From Gimesia sp. (GTDB taxonomy: Bacteria; Planctomycetota; Planctomycetia; Planctomycetales; Planctomycetaceae), in assembly GCF_040219335.1 (NCBI RefSeq), contig NZ_JAVJSQ010000007.1, positions 1-64,000 of the forward strand: DNA of 64,000 bases, written 5' to 3'. Both the position numbers and the translations under genes were made by a program. This document shows, in pieces, positions 3,898 to 11,280 of this stretch; positions within the stretch are counted from its first letter, which is position 1; every line of letters begins with the position of its first letter. Below the pieces are notes generated by a model, which saw nothing but the letters and a program-made list of their open reading frames with translations, was not told the DNA's origin and searched no databases.

Positions 3898-4731
3898 TTA
3901 ATCTCCCAATCCAATCCGCACGATAACATCTTTAGATTCAAGATAACCTTTGACATTTGGATGGACGCCATATTTGAACCAATATTCAACTTTTTTCCCT
4001 TCTTTGCGGGCATGTGCCAAAGTTGCTCTGAGTTGATTCTTAAATGCCTTTCCCGAATAGTATTTAGCCCTATCAACAGCACCAAGAGATCGCTTCACCT
4101 GGATTAAGCGATTATTGGTTAAGACATCTATTTCAAATGTTTTCCCTGCATGCATGAATTCCTGGCCAGTTTTACCTTTGACCACACCTGCAACAAGATC
4201 TTCATAGTGAGCATCCAATGCCTGAGAAGACTTGCCTTGGTCATTAAATTTTTTTGCTCGTGGAGATAGACAAAGCCCCCCATTATGCACCAGCACACCC
4301 GAGTCGGCAACGTAGTAGGTGTGTTTGACTTGGACTTCGAGGTTGTAGACCGCTTCGGGCGGGCCGCGGGGACTGATACTCTTGACGGTGGTGATGCCGT
4401 TTAGGTTTTGTAAACGCTCACCCACCGTCAGGCTGTCTGCTCTGACGAAGGCTTGTCTGTCGACGCTCCAGAAGGGGTGGTTTGGCGTAGTGCCGATGGG
4501 CTTGGATTCCCCTTCCACACCGATGTCCAGCGTCTTGGCGGCTTGATGATGGAAGGTGCCGGTGACGATCTGGAAGCCGGGTCCCGGGCTCTTAGCGATC
4601 GACGGACAGGCTTCAATCTGCAACAGTGTGGCATCGCCCTGAATGCCACATTCGGGAACAGAGATATAGAGCGTCTCACCAACTGTGGCCCGTTGTAAGG
4701 ATAACCAGAGTGTAGGCCGAAGCAGTTGCAC
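3898..4731 (-). CDS. orphan polymorphic-toxin tip: Hint domain plus PD-(D/E)xK-like nuclease
   Basis: The first about 140 residues are a Hint self-splicing-type domain: TTPNHPFWSVD (block B T-x-x-H), later VLVHNG, the conserved junction before the toxin. The last about 125 residues form a small domain containing FEIDVLTNNRLIQVKRS, matching the D-x(n)-(E/Q)-x-K signature of restriction-endonuclease-fold toxins; basic residues are plentiful. GTG 4731 is the first plausible start, but the frame is open to 4896 and the upstream residues (KPIQDIQTGQWVKAD) are clearly Hint too, so the true gene has lost its N-terminus, including the Hint cysteine and any secretion domain. It is probably a silent cassette that gains a delivery domain by recombination. 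The immunity-like gene 3554-3895 follows at once. Confidence 0.75.
   Translation of the reverse strand: MQLLRPTLWLSLQRATVGETLYISVPECGIQGDATLLQIEACPSIAKSPGPGFQIVTGTFHHQAAKTLDIGVEGESKPIGTTPNHPFWSVDRQAFVRADSLTVGERLQNLNGITTVKSISPRGPPEAVYNLEVQVKHTYYVADSGVLVHNGGLCLSPRAKKFNDQGKSSQALDAHYEDLVAGVVKGKTGQEFMHAGKTFEIDVLTNNRLIQVKRSLGAVDRAKYYSGKAFKNQLRATLAHARKEGKKVEYWFKYGVHPNVKGYLESKDVIVRIGLGD
4280..4505 (-). repeat. direct repeat R2, copy 1 (Hint C-terminal half)
   Basis: About 226 bases closely matching 6182-6407 in the same orientation. It encodes the end of the Hint domain through the VLVHNG junction. Sequence similarity stops exactly where the toxin-specific part begins, as expected for exchangeable tips. 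Confidence 0.8.
4431..4697 (-). repeat. direct repeat R1, copy 2 (Hint-coding)
   Basis: Second copy of the 267-base repeat seen at 2664-2930, inside the Hint part of the nuclease-toxin cassette. The left part also overlaps repeat R2, so this cassette carries the most complete Hint region in the window. Confidence 0.8.
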
Positions 4732-4918
4732 GCGCGCCGTCGTCCCATCCAGTTTGGGAGCATCGAGTGACAGCAGCTTCCAGGTCGCCGGGTCAACGTC
4801 TTTCCCGAACTCGGTATCATCCTCTTCAGCAGGATTGTCGGCTTTGACCCACTGACCGGTTTGGATATCCTGAATCGGTTTCGAAGTTAGCGGTATTTAA
4901 ATTAAGGATTAATAATAA

Positions 4919-5758
4919 TTACATTTTAAACGCGACTAATCGAGCCCATTCAGGATGCTTATCGTTCAGATTGATTATTGAATCGTTTATTCCCCCTTTT
5001 ACAACAACATTCGACGTTCTGTCTAAAGTAACGACTTCTTTTGCAAAAGCTGTTATGAGAACTTCCGAGTGTATCGAAAGAGGGCCTTGTTCAGGAAATC
5101 TAATTAGATTCGTAAAGTAATCATTGATAGTCAGATCAGATTGAATTTTAAACCAATCTGTATTGCTTGCAATAATCCACCAATCATCGACCTTGAAGGA
5201 AATTGCCATGTGACCGGAGATTAAAATATCTTCAACAAGTAATGCAGTAAGAGAACTCTCATTCCATTTTTCTTGTGGTAAGTATATGTCAGAATTTGAA
5301 TGGATATGTGAAATTGCATCAAATCCCAACTCATTGTTAAAGTTACAATACCTCTGGGATTCCTTATCATAGATTAGCTGAAATAGAATTCGCGAAATTA
5401 GTTGCTCTACCAAAAAGACTGATTGCTTTAGAGTACAGTTCGCCCACACACCGGTCTTAACCCAATACCCGTGTTCCTTACGCATGCTCCAGTTTGATTT
5501 CATAGGACTGTAACCGATAATAAACTGATTTAAGTCGGAGTCAAATTCAATCAAAAGAATCTCTGTGTTTCTTCGTGGCGTAAATTGAGAATCCCATTTT
5601 TCTGAAACAGTTTCTATGCAAAAAGTTTGGTGTGACCAAACGCCAAATAACTGGCTGGAAAACCACTGTTGGCTAAGGTTGACAAGTAATTGCTCAAATA
5701 GCTCAGGTATATTTGGATAATCAGTTACATGAGAATTACTACTAAGAGGTGACCACAT
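4919..5758 (-). CDS. probable immunity protein for the second toxin tip
   Basis: A 279-residue AT-rich gene with no signal peptide or membrane segment; rich in Trp, Asn, Ser and Ile. It starts 33 bases after the toxin-tip frame ending at 5791 and reads in the same direction, so it is the natural partner of that toxin. I do not recognise its family. Its length is larger than most single-domain immunity proteins, so it could be a two-domain protein. The low GC content contrasts with the GC-rich Hint repeats on both sides. Confidence 0.6.
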   Translation of the reverse strand: MWSPLSSNSHVTDYPNIPELFEQLLVNLSQQWFSSQLFGVWSHQTFCIETVSEKWDSQFTPRRNTEILLIEFDSDLNQFIIGYSPMKSNWSMRKEHGYWVKTGVWANCTLKQSVFLVEQLISRILFQLIYDKESQRYCNFNNELGFDAISHIHSNSDIYLPQEKWNESSLTALLVEDILISGHMAISFKVDDWWIIASNTDWFKIQSDLTINDYFTNLIRFPEQGPLSIHSEVLITAFAKEVVTLDRTSNVVVKGGINDSIINLNDKHPEWARLVAFKM

Positions 5759-5790
5759 TTCATGCCTTGTAGATATAATTATAAAATAGT

Positions 5791-6495
5791 TTAAAGGCTA
5801 GGAATTAGCCTCCCTTTTAAAATATCTTTTCCATCAAACCAAGCTTTACCATCAAGGTAGAAAGTAGTTTTCTTTAATAATTCAGAGTTTTCCCAAATAC
5901 TTCGAAATTCCATATTTGTGAAATTAAAACGATGCCAATCTTTTGAATCTTTTACAGCAGCTAAGACTTTAAATCGATCTAAATTAAAATGAATATGCTT
6001 TGCATTTTTTGAAGCCTCATCAAATGCAAGATCAAAGACTCCATTATTCTCTGCATTAAATTGAGTTAACTTATTCTCCTTCCACTTCCAAAATGGTAAT
6101 CCACCTGTTTCGTCAGCAAAATTTTGATAATTTTTTTTGGGACCAAGCCCAAGTGCTATTTCATCAGATTTACAAGGTGCTCCATTATGCACCAGCACAC
6201 CCGTGTCGGCAACGTAGTAAGTGTGTTTGACTTGGACTTCGAGGTTGTAGACCGGTTCGGGTGGGCCGCGGGGACTGATACTCTTGACGGTTGTGATGCC
6301 GTTTAGGTTTTGTAGCCGTTCACCGACGGTCAGGCTGTCTGCCCGGACGAAGGCTTGGCGGTCGACGCTCCAGATGGGGTGATTTGGCGTGGTGTCGATG
6401 GGTTTGGGGGCCAGGAAAGGTGTCAGGAACCTTTGATTGACGCAGCGCAACTTCAGTCGCTCCAGTAAATCGAGTTGTGGTCTGGTTAGTTCCAT
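5791..6495 (-). CDS. orphan polymorphic-toxin tip: Hint C-terminal half plus unknown toxin domain
   Basis: The frame starts with about 28 unrelated residues, then jumps into the Hint domain at TTPNHPIWSVD and runs through VLVHNG. The tip of about 130 residues contains ALGLGPKKNYQNFADETGG, KHIHFNLDRF and NFTNMEFRSIWEN. This pattern reminds me of the 'polymorphic toxin type 27' family, but I hold that only weakly. The Hint domain lacks its first half, so self-cleavage is not possible as it stands. A GTG at 6522 would give nine more residues; neither start has a convincing ribosome binding site. The candidate immunity gene is 4919-5758. Confidence 0.6.
   Translation of the reverse strand: MELTRPQLDLLERLKLRCVNQRFLTPFLAPKPIDTTPNHPIWSVDRQAFVRADSLTVGERLQNLNGITTVKSISPRGPPEPVYNLEVQVKHTYYVADTGVLVHNGAPCKSDEIALGLGPKKNYQNFADETGGLPFWKWKENKLTQFNAENNGVFDLAFDEASKNAKHIHFNLDRFKVLAAVKDSKDWHRFNFTNMEFRSIWENSELLKKTTFYLDGKAWFDGKDILKGRLIPSL
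6182..6407 (-). repeat. direct repeat R2, copy 2 (Hint C-terminal half)
   Basis: Matches 4280-4505 closely in the same orientation. The join at about 6407, where Hint homology stops abruptly within a reading frame, marks a past recombination point. Confidence 0.8.
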
Positions 6496-6524
6496 AGGAT
6501 AACTTGAATCAGGGAGACACACAG

Positions 6525-8416: not shown

Positions 8417-10027
<1,611 letters not shown>

Positions 10028-10141
10028 CATAGCCTCCTTTAAAAAACGGGTCCGGCGAAAGACGCATCAGTCCCCACTGACGGCAGCCGGATCCTGTGCA
10101 AAGTTTGCATTTAAGGGGTCTGGTCTCTTAAATGCAGCTTC

Positions 10142-10293
10142 AATAAAAGCACTCGACGAGGTATTCGAGCAGAGTCCCACCCTGCCTCTCCGCGCGCACG
10201 CGGAGTTCAGGGTCCGGCCCCGATTTAAATATTCAGTGGGCCGGGCAGGAGTTGAACCAGCGAAACCATGTACTCCACTCCAGCAGTCGAGTG
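10142..10293 (-). ncRNA. Y-RNA-like unit 3 (divergent module)
   Basis: Ends are joined by an 8-bp helix: CACTCGAC (10293 down to 10286) with GTCGAGTG (10157 down to 10150), followed by a T-rich tail. The 5' strand has the array's conserved GACTGC and GGAGTACATGG, and the 3' strand has CTCGTCGAG. Inside are a T-arm-like hairpin near GGTTCAACTCC, a GC-rich hairpin (CCGGCCC with GGGCCGG around an AT-rich loop) in place of the acceptor, and a long perfect hairpin (CTCCGCG/CGCGGAG) where the tRNA mimics have a D-arm. Probably bound by the TROVE protein. It is the unit closest to that gene. Confidence 0.7.
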
Positions 10294-10302
10294 AGTCGCT
10301 TA

Positions 10303-10451
10303 AGAAAAACCGACGAAGTTGTGTAAAGAGAGTTTTCTTCTGATGCTTCTACCATTAAAGCTACAACGTGTTGTGCGGTTGCACGCGGCGCTGGTGGGAT
10401 TCGAACCCACAACTAACAGATCACGATGTACTCCCCTTCGGCAGTCGGTCC
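10303..10451 (-). ncRNA. Y-RNA-like unit 2 (permuted tRNA mimic)
   Basis: Terminal helix ACCGAC (10449 down to 10444) with GTCGGT (10314 down to 10309), followed by TTTTTC, a terminator-like end. The conserved 5' strand ACCGACTGCCGA and GGAGTACAT, and the 3' strand ACTTCGTCGGT, match the other units. The interior has a perfect T-arm (GTGGG TTCGAAT CCCAC, 10410-10394) placed before a D-arm (GCTT/AAGC with loop TAATGGTAG, 10361-10345), with a capped GC-rich hairpin between them. This is the permuted tRNA-elbow order known for YrlA-type bacterial Y RNAs. Confidence 0.8.
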
Positions 10452-10554
10452 TGTTTGCATGTGACGCTATTTGCGTCTCGGTTTGTCGACGATCAAAGTT
10501 TCGGTCTCCTTGAATGCATGCGATCCGTCTGCCGACAGATCGTCTTTCGACAGT
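10452..10554 (-). other. structured spacer between Y-RNA units 1 and 2
   Basis: Read on the minus strand it contains GACGATC and, about 45 bases later, GATCGTC, flanked by GTCG/CGAC, so a hairpin-like closed structure is possible. It also carries a GTCGGCAGACGG segment reminiscent of the unit helix. It may be a decayed Y-RNA unit or hold a promoter for unit 2; I see no clear -10/-35. Confidence 0.35.
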
Positions 10555-10703
10555 AAATACAACCGACGAAGTGGTGAACCAGAGTTTCTACGGTGCTCTA
10601 CCATTGAGCTACGGCGCGACTCGCTTTGCGAATGAGCGCCGGTGGGACTCGAACCCACAACCCCCGGGTCCTGAACCATGTACTCCAGATCGGCAGTCGG
10701 TCA
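10555..10703 (-). ncRNA. Y-RNA-like unit 1 (clear permuted tRNA mimic)
   Basis: Terminal helix ACCGAC (10701-10696) with GTCGGT (10567-10562). The interior is a clean circularly permuted tRNA: T-arm GTGGG TTCGAGT CCCAC (10658-10642), then a closed acceptor-like hairpin (CGGCGC/GCGCCG capped by a TTCGC-AAA-GCGAG stem), then TA and a D-arm GCTC AATGGTA GAGC (10609-10595). The GG of the D-loop and TTCGA of the T-loop are both present, so the tRNA elbow should form. This matches the architecture described for bacterial YrlA Y RNAs. No T-tract follows, so it may be processed from a longer transcript. Confidence 0.85.
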
Positions 10704-10711
10704 TGTCTTTT

Positions 10712-10897
10712 TTAAAACCCAACGAAGGGGCATCGAGATTCTTGCCTCTTCGGCCGTCCTGATCGGTCGCATGTGAAACCGTCAGTCGACACGCGCCAGA
10801 CCATCTCACAGAGATGCCGTTGCGCTCACCTTCCCTGGATCACTCCAGGTTAGCTACCTTAGGACCGTCATAATGTAATCCCGACAGTCAGTTGGAT
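10712..10897 (-). ncRNA. Y-RNA-like unit with a 23S rRNA-like module
   Basis: Terminal helix CCAAC (10895 down) with GTTGG (ending 10719), then a T-rich tail (GGGTTTT...). The 3' strand CCTTCGTTGG matches the other units, and the 5' strand has the related CCAACTGACTGTCGGGATTACAT. The interior has no tRNA arms. Instead it holds ACGGTCCTAAGGTAGC (10868 down to 10853), identical to the core of the I-CeuI site in 23S rRNA; 20 of 22 bases match when extended by three each side. Short hairpins (CCTGGAGTGATCCAGG and a CATCTC/GAGATG stem) follow. Confidence 0.7.
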
Positions 10898-10904
10898 TTT
10901 CAAC

Positions 10905-10983
10905 AAACCGGCCAACGAAGAAATGATACAGACATCGGTTCTTAATCAGAGAATGATGTAGTCCGCATCGGCAGTTGGCTGGT
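10905..10983 (-). ncRNA. minimal Y-RNA-like unit
   Basis: GCCAAC (10979 down to 10974) pairs with GTTGGC (10916 down to 10911). The 5' strand carries CAACTGCCGATGCGGACTACATC and the 3' strand TTTCTTCGTTGGCC, the same signature as in the larger units. Only about 30 bases lie between the two conserved strands, so there is no tRNA-like or rRNA-like module. It begins four bases after the tRNA-Cys, suggesting it is released by tRNA 3'-end processing. Confidence 0.65.
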
Positions 10984-10986
10984 TTA

Positions 10987-11058
10987 AGACGCCGGTGGGA
11001 GTCGAACCCACTTAGAACTGCTTTGCAGGCAGTCGCCTGGCCATCTGGCTCCAGCGTC
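10987..11058 (-). tRNA. tRNA-Cys (GCA)
   Basis: A complete 72-base cloverleaf: acceptor GACGCTG/CGGCGTC, D-stem GCC/GGC with a GG-containing loop, anticodon stem ACTGC/GCAGT with loop CTGCAAA (anticodon GCA), T-arm GTGGG TTCGACT CCCAC, discriminator U as usual for Cys. Odd point: the two bases joining acceptor and D-stem are GA instead of the near-universal UA. CCA is not encoded. It leads directly into the Y-RNA array. Confidence 0.85.
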
Positions 11059-11068
11059 AGTTTTACTC

Positions 11069-11141
11069 AAGTACCCCGCCAGGGAATCGAACCCCGTCTA
11101 ATGGTTCCGAAGACCATCGTGCATCAATCACACCCGCAAGG
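11069..11141 (-). pseudogene. tRNA-Arg (UCG)-like sequence with broken acceptor stem
   Basis: Anticodon arm ATGGT CTTCGGA ACCAT (anticodon TCG) and T-arm CGGGG TTCGATT CCCTG are well formed, and the 3' acceptor strand would be GCGGGGT-A. The expected 5' strand ACCCCGC is absent: the bases at that place (TGCCTTG) do not pair. The D-arm is weak (GTG/CAC, no GG in the loop). It is either a degraded or recombined tRNA gene or another tRNA-like RNA of the array. Confidence 0.55.
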
Positions 11142-11280
11142 CAGATCAATTCGTTCACAGACAAAACACCGCTCGTCTGTTGCCGATAAAAGACAGTGAA
11201 CGTTCAGCAGGGGTTCGCTGTTTTCTGCAGGAAATTAATTTCATTGGAAAACAGTCACTCTGATTTCTCACAAGTCCTGC

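What the first reader, a model, noticed from the sequence alone, without database searches (positions are those of the whole stretch)
10142..10983. Tandem array of at least five Y-RNA-like genes with interchangeable modules, upstream of a TROVE gene
Five same-strand units share one end signature: a 5' strand related to CCGACTGCCGA...GGAGTACAT and a 3' strand CTTCGTCGG or CTTCGTTGG that pairs with it. Covarying pairs are visible (ACCGAC/GTCGGT, CCAAC/GTTGG, CACTCGAC/GTCGAGTG), which is strong evidence for structured RNA. The insides differ: two tRNA mimics, one rRNA-like, one hairpin-rich, one nearly empty. Bacterial Y RNAs bound by Rsr/Ro60 are known, usually one or two per locus (YrlA, YrlB). 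An array that keeps the protein-binding handle and swaps the module suggests the TROVE ring is given a set of different adaptors.
Basis: partly seen in the sequence, partly recalled or inferred. Interest (0 to 1): 0.93.

Follow-up and report, generated by a model that had tools for sequence, protein, structure and literature searches.

The report
Ring-protein RNAs mimicking tRNA and rRNA
Beside the gene for a Ro60-like ring protein, this planctomycete carries five predicted small-RNA genes that share one pair of ends; four of them enclose look-alikes of translation RNAs (three tRNA-like, one a rearranged junction of 23S ribosomal RNA), so each kind would likely equip the ring for a different class of RNA.

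Summary
Confirmed and extended. Exactly five handle-closed units lie on the minus strand at 10150-10979, between tRNA-Cys and a TROVE/Ro60 gene; the scan found none elsewhere in the window or in 40 shuffles. Relatives keep such arrays: 65 of 90 distinct planctomycete loci with enough upstream DNA have 2-10 units. The rRNA-like unit is a circularly permuted mimic of the 23S H67-H68-H69-H70/71 junction: its structure covaries (25 of 44 pairs with two-sided changes, 0 of 500 shuffles), and un-permuting it gives a match running through the joint to E. coli 23S 1895-1975. Most copies are opened at the H69 tip, where the handle sits, as YrlA is opened at the anticodon stem. The 'nearly empty' kind is in many relatives an anticodon stem-loop mimic; the window's copy fits imperfectly. 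The 'hairpin-rich' unit carries a T-arm and an acceptor-like hairpin. A sixth handle precedes the TROVE ribosome-binding site, and tRNA genes often precede the array. Best reading: a multi-adaptor Ro60 RNP for stable-RNA surveillance. Expression, TROVE binding and function are untested.

The parts
8417..10030 (-). TROVE/Ro60-type ring protein gene (Rsr-like), 537 aa
   Evidence: Pfam TROVE 46.3 bits and vWA_Ro60 48.6 bits, both over cut-off; profile of 15 relatives matches Rsr 2nvo E 7e-28 and Ro60 9nen/1yvp
10051..10091 (-). Sixth element: handle-only hairpin in the TROVE mRNA leader (TCCGGC/GCCGGA, CTGCC and CTTTC kept), followed by a T-run and the Shine-Dalgarno sequence
   Evidence: a handle closed by 6 bp or more ends 14-52 bases before the start codon in 48 of 102 loci; 0 or 1 in each of 20 shuffled sets; fold z -2.0
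10150..10293 (-). Unit 5: handle CACTCGAC/GTCGAGTG around a T-arm-like hairpin, an acceptor-like stem GGCCC/GGGCC and a further hairpin ('hairpin-rich')
   Evidence: Rfam YrlA 24.2 bits E 0.02; fold z -3.4
10306..10452 (-). Unit 4: YrlA-like (T-arm, acceptor-like hairpin, degenerate D-arm)
   Evidence: Rfam YrlA 29.1 bits E 7e-4; fold z -1.2, MFE lacks the D-arm
10559..10704 (-). Unit 3: YrlA-like (T-arm, acceptor-like hairpin, D-arm); tRNA-like in circularly permuted order without anticodon arm
   Evidence: Rfam YrlA 46.6 bits E 7e-9; MFE shows T-arm, acceptor-like stem and D-arm, z -1.3
10714..10900 (-). Unit 2: circularly permuted mimic of the 23S rRNA H67/H68/H69/H70-71 junction on the common handle
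   Evidence: own unit can form 5 of 6 H69 pairs, H71, H67, cap and the H68 base and distal stem; fold z -3.4 but MFE lacks H69
10853..10868 (-). 16 bases identical to 23S rRNA (E. coli 1919-1934): H69 3' strand and the following H70 strand
10911..10979 (-). Unit 1: shortest unit; hairpin TTCT-CTGATTA-AGAA, anticodon-loop form except for U at position 37
   Evidence: sister genomes carry TCTTT-CTGTCAA-AAAGA at the same place; fold z -2.5 on 10907-10983, where the MFE shows a 3-bp stem with a 5-base loop instead
10987..11058 (-). tRNA-Cys(GCA), the last tRNA before the array also in 19 of 42 relatives examined
   Evidence: ARAGORN
11071..11142 (-). tRNA-Arg(TCG)
   Evidence: ARAGORN

Best explanation
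The locus encodes a Ro60-type ring protein and five predicted Y RNAs that share one handle but carry different look-alikes of translation RNAs (tRNA elbow, T-arm/acceptor hairpin, a possible anticodon loop, and a circularly permuted 23S rRNA junction), which likely bind the ring by the handle and would each recruit the enzymes that recognise the RNA element they copy. Shown by sequence: the handle (outer helix, asymmetric internal loop, inner helix), its conservation and covariation, the identity of the modules, and the permuted topology. The main form of the rRNA unit and YrlA follow one building rule: the element is opened at its tip (H69 loop; anticodon stem), the handle is put there, and the natural ends are closed by a hairpin. 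Inferred from studied Y RNAs: TROVE binds the handle and the module faces outward as a tether. Inferred here: the set lets one ring be programmed for tRNA and 23S rRNA maturation, repair or decay; the leader handle lets free TROVE repress its own translation; and U-tracts after handles end the transcripts. Anatomy about 0.95; the adaptor mechanism about 0.5.
For: Five units in the window, 0 in 40 shuffles. rRNA unit: on 15 sequences 93.3% of cells pair, 25 of 44 pairs change on both sides, 0 of 500 shuffles reach any of five measures, slid controls pair 28-46%. The un-permuted profile matches E. coli 23S 1895-1975 through the joint at 22.4 bits against 16.3 as encoded; of 38 cut points, those at columns 82-138 (cap, H67 strand, start of H68) score 21.9-22.3 bits and the cut at column 38 loses the match; an un-permuted covariance model hits 23S 1833-1955 at E 2.4e-4, next best 1.1. 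Anticodon loops: full pattern in 36 of 89 short units against a shuffled mean of 2.45, maximum 8 of 200; 17 of 52 units under 74 nt (the size of window unit 1) against 1.5, maximum 6, and 19 of 37 of 74-99 nt against 0.95, maximum 3. In 19 hand-picked units 10 distinct stems pair at 96% against 58% shuffled, U33 in 18 of 19. Conserved arrays: 65 of 90 loci with 2 or more units; anticodon-loop, rRNA, T+D and T-arm-only classes in 33, 26, 47 and 49 of 65. Order: anticodon-loop before rRNA in 12 of 13, rRNA before T+D in 19 of 22, T+D before T-only in 28 of 40. Of 30 genomes with any match to the rRNA-unit model, 27 have a TROVE match, against 54 of 150 overall. A genome of another family, whose unit is not in the model, has rRNA, tRNA-like and (by eye) anticodon-loop units beside a TROVE gene of 73% identity. 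tRNA genes precede the array on the same strand in 34 of 42 loci. Tethering precedent: D. radiodurans Rsr-Y RNA-PNPase (passages of PMC7790460, PMC4726728, PMC8394870).
Against: No expression or binding data. Thermodynamic folding alone does not give the H69 stem in the window's rRNA unit, nor the anticodon-form hairpin in unit 1, and units 3 and 4 fold little better than shuffles (z -1.3 and -1.2). The window's unit 1 lacks a purine at position 37. All YrlA scores are under Rfam's gathering score. Some arrays or rRNA units have no TROVE gene in the fetched 5-10 kb, and 3 of 30 genomes with a model match have no TROVE match. The parser found no rRNA unit in 39 of 65 arrays. In the H69 stem the outermost pair is broken in 6 of 15, and one H67 pair in 8 of 15. 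Nothing identifies a recruited enzyme; the units lack the 23S segment AAUUCCU, so enzymes needing it cannot be the partner.
Confidence: 0.52

Rival explanations
1. Decoys: the mimics are sacrificial targets or competitive inhibitors for nucleases and other toxins that attack tRNA anticodon loops, tRNA elbows or 23S rRNA; the ring only stabilises them.
For: Anticodon letters vary between units while the loop frame is kept, as expected under changing attackers; PMC7790460 raises competitive inhibition of an anticodon nuclease for YrlA (passage); toxin-like modules lie downstream of TROVE.
Against: The rRNA units lack the AAUUCCU segment of 23S, and most lack the H69 loop (AACTAT kept in 6 of 25 rows), so these 23S sites are missing; the YrlA-type units lack an anticodon arm. 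The same paper detected no YrlA fragments (passage).
Confidence: 0.18
2. The mimic modules occupy the ring or its partner nuclease like substrates and act as gates: they set which misfolded tRNAs or rRNAs gain access, without recruiting further enzymes.
For: Gating by Y RNA is described for Ro60/Rsr (passages of PMC4726728); modules resemble the presumed substrates.
Against: Unpaired rRNA-like letters are kept (12 of the 13 letters of CCTAAGGTAGCGA are invariant in 15 units), which suggests recognition by something that reads them; that gating would not need such a faithful mimic is my inference.
Confidence: 0.17
3. Ribosomal-protein or rRNA-enzyme titration: the rRNA unit is a binding site for a ribosomal protein or assembly factor, tying ring levels to ribosome assembly, and the tRNA-like units are inherited YrlA relatives.
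For: rRNA mimicry is a known regulatory device (recalled; a review title on it appears in a reference list); the junction is kept as a fold.
Against: Does not explain the anticodon-loop and T-arm/acceptor units in the same arrays.
Confidence: 0.08
4. Remnants: tRNA and rRNA gene fragments trapped in a tRNA operon and kept by chance.
For: The array sits at the end of tRNA clusters in many loci.
Against: Compensatory changes, common handle, order kept across loci and the circular permutation.
Confidence: 0.01

Closest known systems
Bacterial Y RNA YrlA (Rfam RF02553; Salmonella YrlA, PDB 6CU1)
   Same: Encoded beside a Ro60 gene; paired ends with an internal loop; T-arm, acceptor-like stem and D-arm in circularly permuted order (permutation stated in passages of PMC11472068)
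   Different: Five units in tandem plus a leader handle; Rfam scores below gathering; extra module classes (23S junction, anticodon loop, T-arm/acceptor) on the same handle
RYPER (Rsr-Y RNA-PNPase of Deinococcus radiodurans)
   Same: Ring protein with Y RNA as a tether (passages)
   Different: No PNPase tether tested here; several different candidate tethers per ring gene
rsr-yrlBA-rtcBA RNA repair operon
   Same: Ro60 and Y RNA genes together (passages)
   Different: Here a Y array follows tRNA genes; rtc genes were not looked for. A second TROVE clade in the same family (42-44% identity, 14 loci) has no unit of this type upstream
rRNA-mimicking regulatory RNAs (mRNA leaders that copy ribosomal-protein sites; recalled)
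   Same: A non-ribosomal RNA copies an rRNA element
   Different: A predicted Y-type RNA, circularly permuted, copying a multi-helix junction of 23S domain IV

Membership tests
Bacterial Y RNA / YrlA | Encoded next to a Ro60/TROVE gene | tested here: met
Bacterial Y RNA / YrlA | 5' and 3' ends form a stem with an internal loop (Ro-binding type handle) | tested here: met
   helices 1 and 2 (15 rRNA units of relatives): 99.0% and 95.6% of cells paired, 10 of 13 pairs with two-sided changes; window units close with 6-10 bp
Bacterial Y RNA / YrlA | At least one RNA with T-arm, acceptor-like stem and D-arm | tested here: met
   unit 3, Rfam E 7e-9, MFE arms
Bacterial Y RNA / YrlA | Rfam gathering score (69 bits) | tested here: not met
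   46.6, 29.1, 24.2 bits
Bacterial Y RNA / YrlA | Bound by the Ro60 orthologue | not testable with these tools
   no binding data
Ro60/Rsr protein | TROVE ring plus vWA domain over Pfam cut-offs | tested here: met
   profile match to 2nvo
Ro60/Rsr protein | NCBIfam equivalog RNA-bind_Rsr cut-off (900 bits) | tested here: not met
   86 bits; a relative, not that equivalog
23S rRNA junction mimic | Helices H67, H68 base, H69 and H71 present and covarying | tested here: met
   H67, H69 and H71 each have pairs with two-sided changes; the three H68 base pairs hardly vary, the distal H68 pairs do; window copy 5 of 6 H69 pairs
23S rRNA junction mimic | Sequence homology to 23S in un-permuted order | tested here: met
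   against E. coli 23S only (own 23S is masked); profiles built from relatives' units, window not among the 15
Anticodon stem-loop mimic (window unit 1) | 5-bp stem, 7-nt loop, Y32 U33 R37 | tested here: inconclusive
   window: 4 bp, CUGAUUA, U at 37, not the MFE; 17 of 52 units of this size class fit
RYPER | Y RNA tethers PNPase | not testable with these tools
   no interaction data

The most novel reading that the evidence does not exclude
The Ro60 ring of planctomycetes is a programmable RNA-handling machine whose Y RNAs are a dissected set of translation-RNA mimics (anticodon loop, tRNA elbow, T-arm/acceptor hairpin, 23S H67-H71 junction). The rRNA and tRNA-elbow mimics are made by one rule: open the element at its tip, graft the ring handle there, close the natural ends. 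Together they bring tRNA- and rRNA-specific enzymes to one ring, made alongside the tRNA supply and self-limited through a handle in the ring's own mRNA.
Probability: 0.45. Interest if true: 0.95.

Novelty: new variant of a known kind. Interest (0 to 1): 0.87.

Why it matters
Bacterial Y RNAs are known as tRNA mimics. A conserved, circularly permuted mimic of the 23S intersubunit junction and anticodon-loop mimics on the same handle would show that Ro60 RNPs use a set of interchangeable structural lures. What Y RNA modules are for then becomes testable: each unit predicts a different bound partner and a different RNA substrate. The rRNA unit might also serve as a natural, small piece of 23S domain IV for structural work.

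Tried and rejected
Rejected: (1) rRNA or tRNA pseudogene fragments (covariation, order). (2) Rfam for the rRNA unit: no match at E up to 5 listed over unit 2. (3) The hairpin-rich stretch 10460-10556 as a sixth unit: it folds (z -3.2) but has no handle, and sister genome G136 has no such gap between its units, so it is left out. (4) Viral contigs: one exact 35-base pattern of the rRNA unit, 0 matches. (5) The unknown module GGGAAGCGGGAGCTTCCC in relatives: no Rfam match at E up to 2 listed over that unit in L091. (6) Papers: the listings (titles and abstract starts seen) showed none describing an rRNA-like or anticodon-loop-like Y RNA; three key bacterial Y RNA papers (2014 tRNA-mimic paper, 2018 review, 2018 structure) are not held, so absence from print is not established.

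Full report
What is there. On the minus strand run tRNA-Arg (11142-11071), tRNA-Cys (11058-10987), five handle-closed units, and a TROVE gene (10030-8417). The handle scan found exactly these five units on both strands of 64 kb and none in 40 dinucleotide-preserving shuffles. The protein has TROVE (46.3 bits) and vWA_Ro60 (48.6 bits) domains over their cut-offs; a profile of 15 relatives matches Deinococcus Rsr (2nvo, E 7e-28) and Ro60 (9nen, 1yvp). It scores only 86 bits against NCBI's Rsr equivalog, cut-off 900.

The handle. In 15 aligned rRNA units the handle is a 7-bp outer helix, an asymmetric internal loop (TGCC.. on the 5' side, a stretch ending CTTC or CCTC on the 3' side) and a 6-bp inner helix (..GGGA/TCTC..). 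Of the 13 pairs of both helices, 10 show changes on both sides. The other units were found by a parser that asks for ACTG or GCTG, a GGAnTAC-like box and C[TC]TCG with a helix of 5 bp or more, so they share these by construction; that five such units sit together in one kilobase is what the control addresses. By eye the layout is that of Rfam's YrlA, but scores are 46.6, 29.1 and 24.2 bits, under the gathering score of 69.

Conservation. TROVE matches were found in 54 of 150 genomes sampled from the family. A scan of named genomes gave 293 relatives, of which the best 80 loci were kept. I parsed 42 loci of the first set and 74 of the second; 310 distinct units turned up in 98 of these 116 loci, some of which are one genome seen in both collections. 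After removing identical promoter-proximal sequences there are 102 distinct loci, 90 with at least 1,500 bases upstream: 14 have no unit, 11 one, 65 two to ten. Thirteen of the 14 empty ones belong to a second TROVE clade (42-44% identity); all 14 loci of that clade that I parsed are empty. In the 65, the anticodon-loop class is in 33, the rRNA class in 26, T-arm plus D-arm in 47, T-arm only in 49; 12 have all four, and units outside these classes occur in 48. Where two classes meet, anticodon-loop comes before rRNA in 12 of 13, rRNA before T+D in 19 of 22, and T+D before T-only in 28 of 40. The window reads: unclassified, rRNA, T+D, T+D, T.

The rRNA unit. Letters ACGGTCCTAAGGTAGC equal E. 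coli 23S 1919-1934. In 15 units of the main form the 3' part carries ACGGACGGCCGTAA or a variant, which in 23S (ACGGCGGCCGTAA, 1901-1913) comes before, not after, the first stretch. A structure written for the 23S helices in permuted order (H69 strand, H71, H67 strand, cap hairpin, H67 strand, H68, H69 strand) pairs in 93.3% of 660 cells; 25 of 44 pairs change on both sides; 0 of 500 shuffles reach any of five measures; slid controls pair 28-46%. The structure was written from these sequences, which by itself favours it over slid versions. The H69 stem alone has three pairs with two-sided changes (for example ACGGTC/GGCCGT to AGGAGC/GCTCCT), but its outermost pair is broken in 6 of 15; one H67 pair is broken in 8 of 15. 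RNAalifold on 25 units did not choose the H69 stem. Put back in 23S order, the profile aligns through the joint to E. coli 23S 1895-1975 with two insertions (22.4 bits, E 9.5e-8 for a search of this one rRNA) against 16.3 bits as encoded. Over 38 cut points the score is 21.9-22.3 bits for cuts at columns 82-138 and falls to 0.1, off target, at column 38. A covariance model of the un-permuted form hits 1833-1955 at E 2.4e-4, next best E 1.1 in 5,070 bases; there its H71 part is not placed on the native H71. Helix names and their role in the intersubunit bridge are recalled. Six of 25 aligned units keep the H69 loop AACTAT in normal order; the others, the window included, do not, so the rule 'opened at the H69 tip' holds for the main form. 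The 23S stretch AAUUCCU is missing. The window copy, which was not among the 15, can form 5 of 6 H69 pairs, H71, H67, the cap and the H68 stems, although its minimum-energy fold does not form H69.

How widespread. The rRNA-unit model finds matches in 30 of 150 family genomes at E 1e-3 or better; weak ones are mostly other units sharing the handle. Twenty-two places in 21 genomes are below 1e-20, partly model members; the window's genome has one. In a phylum sample, 6 of 294 genomes match at 1e-6, two of them outside the family. One of these (E 7.8e-41, unit not in the model) has a short anticodon-loop-like unit (by eye), an rRNA unit and tRNA-like units beside a TROVE gene of 73% identity. The other is weak, with a TROVE of 44% and no clear array. 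Against the simple picture: arrays or rRNA units without TROVE in the fetched 5-10 kb exist (some lie near contig ends), and 3 of 30 genomes with a match show no TROVE match.

The anticodon-loop class. Among 88 short units, best hairpins with a stem of 4 or more have 7-base loops in 35 of 70; the rest spread over 4-10. The full pattern (4 bp or more, Y32 U33, R37) is in 36 of 89 short units against a shuffled mean of 2.45, maximum 8 of 200. By size it is 17 of 52 units under 74 nt (1.5, maximum 6) and 19 of 37 of 74-99 nt (0.95, maximum 3). Window unit 1 belongs to the smaller size class, in which two thirds do not fit. In 19 units picked by eye from the larger class, U33 is in 18, A37 in 17; anticodon letters vary (GUU 5, GGU 3, CUU 2, GCG 2 and seven singles); 10 distinct stems pair at 96% against 58% in 2,000 shuffles, none as high; of the 20 aligned, L028 (6-base loop) was left out. 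Window unit 1 has U33 but U at 37, and its minimum-energy fold prefers another small hairpin; genomes with an identical or near-identical TROVE protein have TCTTT-CTGTCAA-AAAGA there. I treat the window copy as a likely degenerate member.

tRNA-like units. Units 3 and 4 carry T-arm, acceptor-like hairpin and D-arm in the YrlA order. That order is a circular permutation of tRNA, as stated for the solved YrlA (PMC11472068, passages). Unit 4's D-arm is poor and absent from its minimum-energy fold. Unit 5 has a T-arm-like hairpin (4 of 5 pairs) and an acceptor-like stem but no D-arm.

Setting. tRNA genes lie upstream on the same strand in 34 of 42 loci given to ARAGORN (42 of the 80 fetched; some contigs end early; two calls have odd anticodons or lengths). 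tRNA-Cys is the last one in 19; 14 loci have ten or more, one has 26. A handle closed by 6 bp or more ends 14-52 bases before the TROVE start in 48 of 102 loci, against 0 or 1 in each of 20 sets of shuffled upstream sequences; in the window it is a bare handle at 10051-10091. TTTT follows the handle within 9 bases in 140 of 310 units against 2.6% of random positions nearby, so handle plus T-run looks like a terminator; this is inference.

Mechanism. Studied Rsr binds the lower stem of Y RNA, and in Deinococcus the Y RNA tethers PNPase (PMC7790460, PMC4726728, PMC8394870, passages). YrlA is a substrate of TruB and DusA (PMC8394870, passage). The simplest extension is that each unit docks one ring by the handle and offers a different lure. 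I put this at about one half; decoy and gating readings share most of the rest. No partner is identified.

Novelty. Known kind: bacterial Y RNAs. New here, as far as the searches show: a permuted 23S junction mimic, an anticodon-loop mimic class, many units per locus with a preferred order, and a leader handle. The literature tools hold only open-licence papers and not the key Y RNA papers, so priority cannot be settled here.

Noticed in passing
window 3898-6522: Downstream of TROVE on the same strand lie ORFs with pretoxin-HINT domains and one with a Tox-REase-3 domain, typical of polymorphic toxin cassettes, with ORFs without Pfam match between them and TROVE.
   Followed up: no
window 10460-10556: Stable hairpin region between units 3 and 4 (z -3.2) without a handle; gaps of similar size exist in some sister genomes (G097, G119) but not in G136.
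   Followed up: partly
L080, L082, L091, L141, L152: Very large tRNA gene clusters (16-26 tRNAs) upstream of and co-oriented with Y arrays and TROVE.
   Followed up: partly
L087, L091, L080, L014, L029, L172: A further recurring module, GGGAAGCGGGAGCTTCCC-like hairpin followed by a short hairpin and GGC, often in the unit nearest TROVE, whose model RNA I could not identify.
   Followed up: partly
L168, L171, L172: Y-type arrays or an rRNA-unit match with no TROVE gene in the fetched stretch.
   Followed up: partly
L054-L067 (second TROVE clade): TROVE genes of 42-44% identity without this array; the upstream region looks different and may be an RNA-repair-type operon (not tested).
   Followed up: no
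L104 and L105, units at -1055 and -389 from the TROVE start: Handles enclosing long inverted repeats of GTTCGAAGT/GAACTTC-like sequence, as if a repeat element had landed inside a unit.
   Followed up: no
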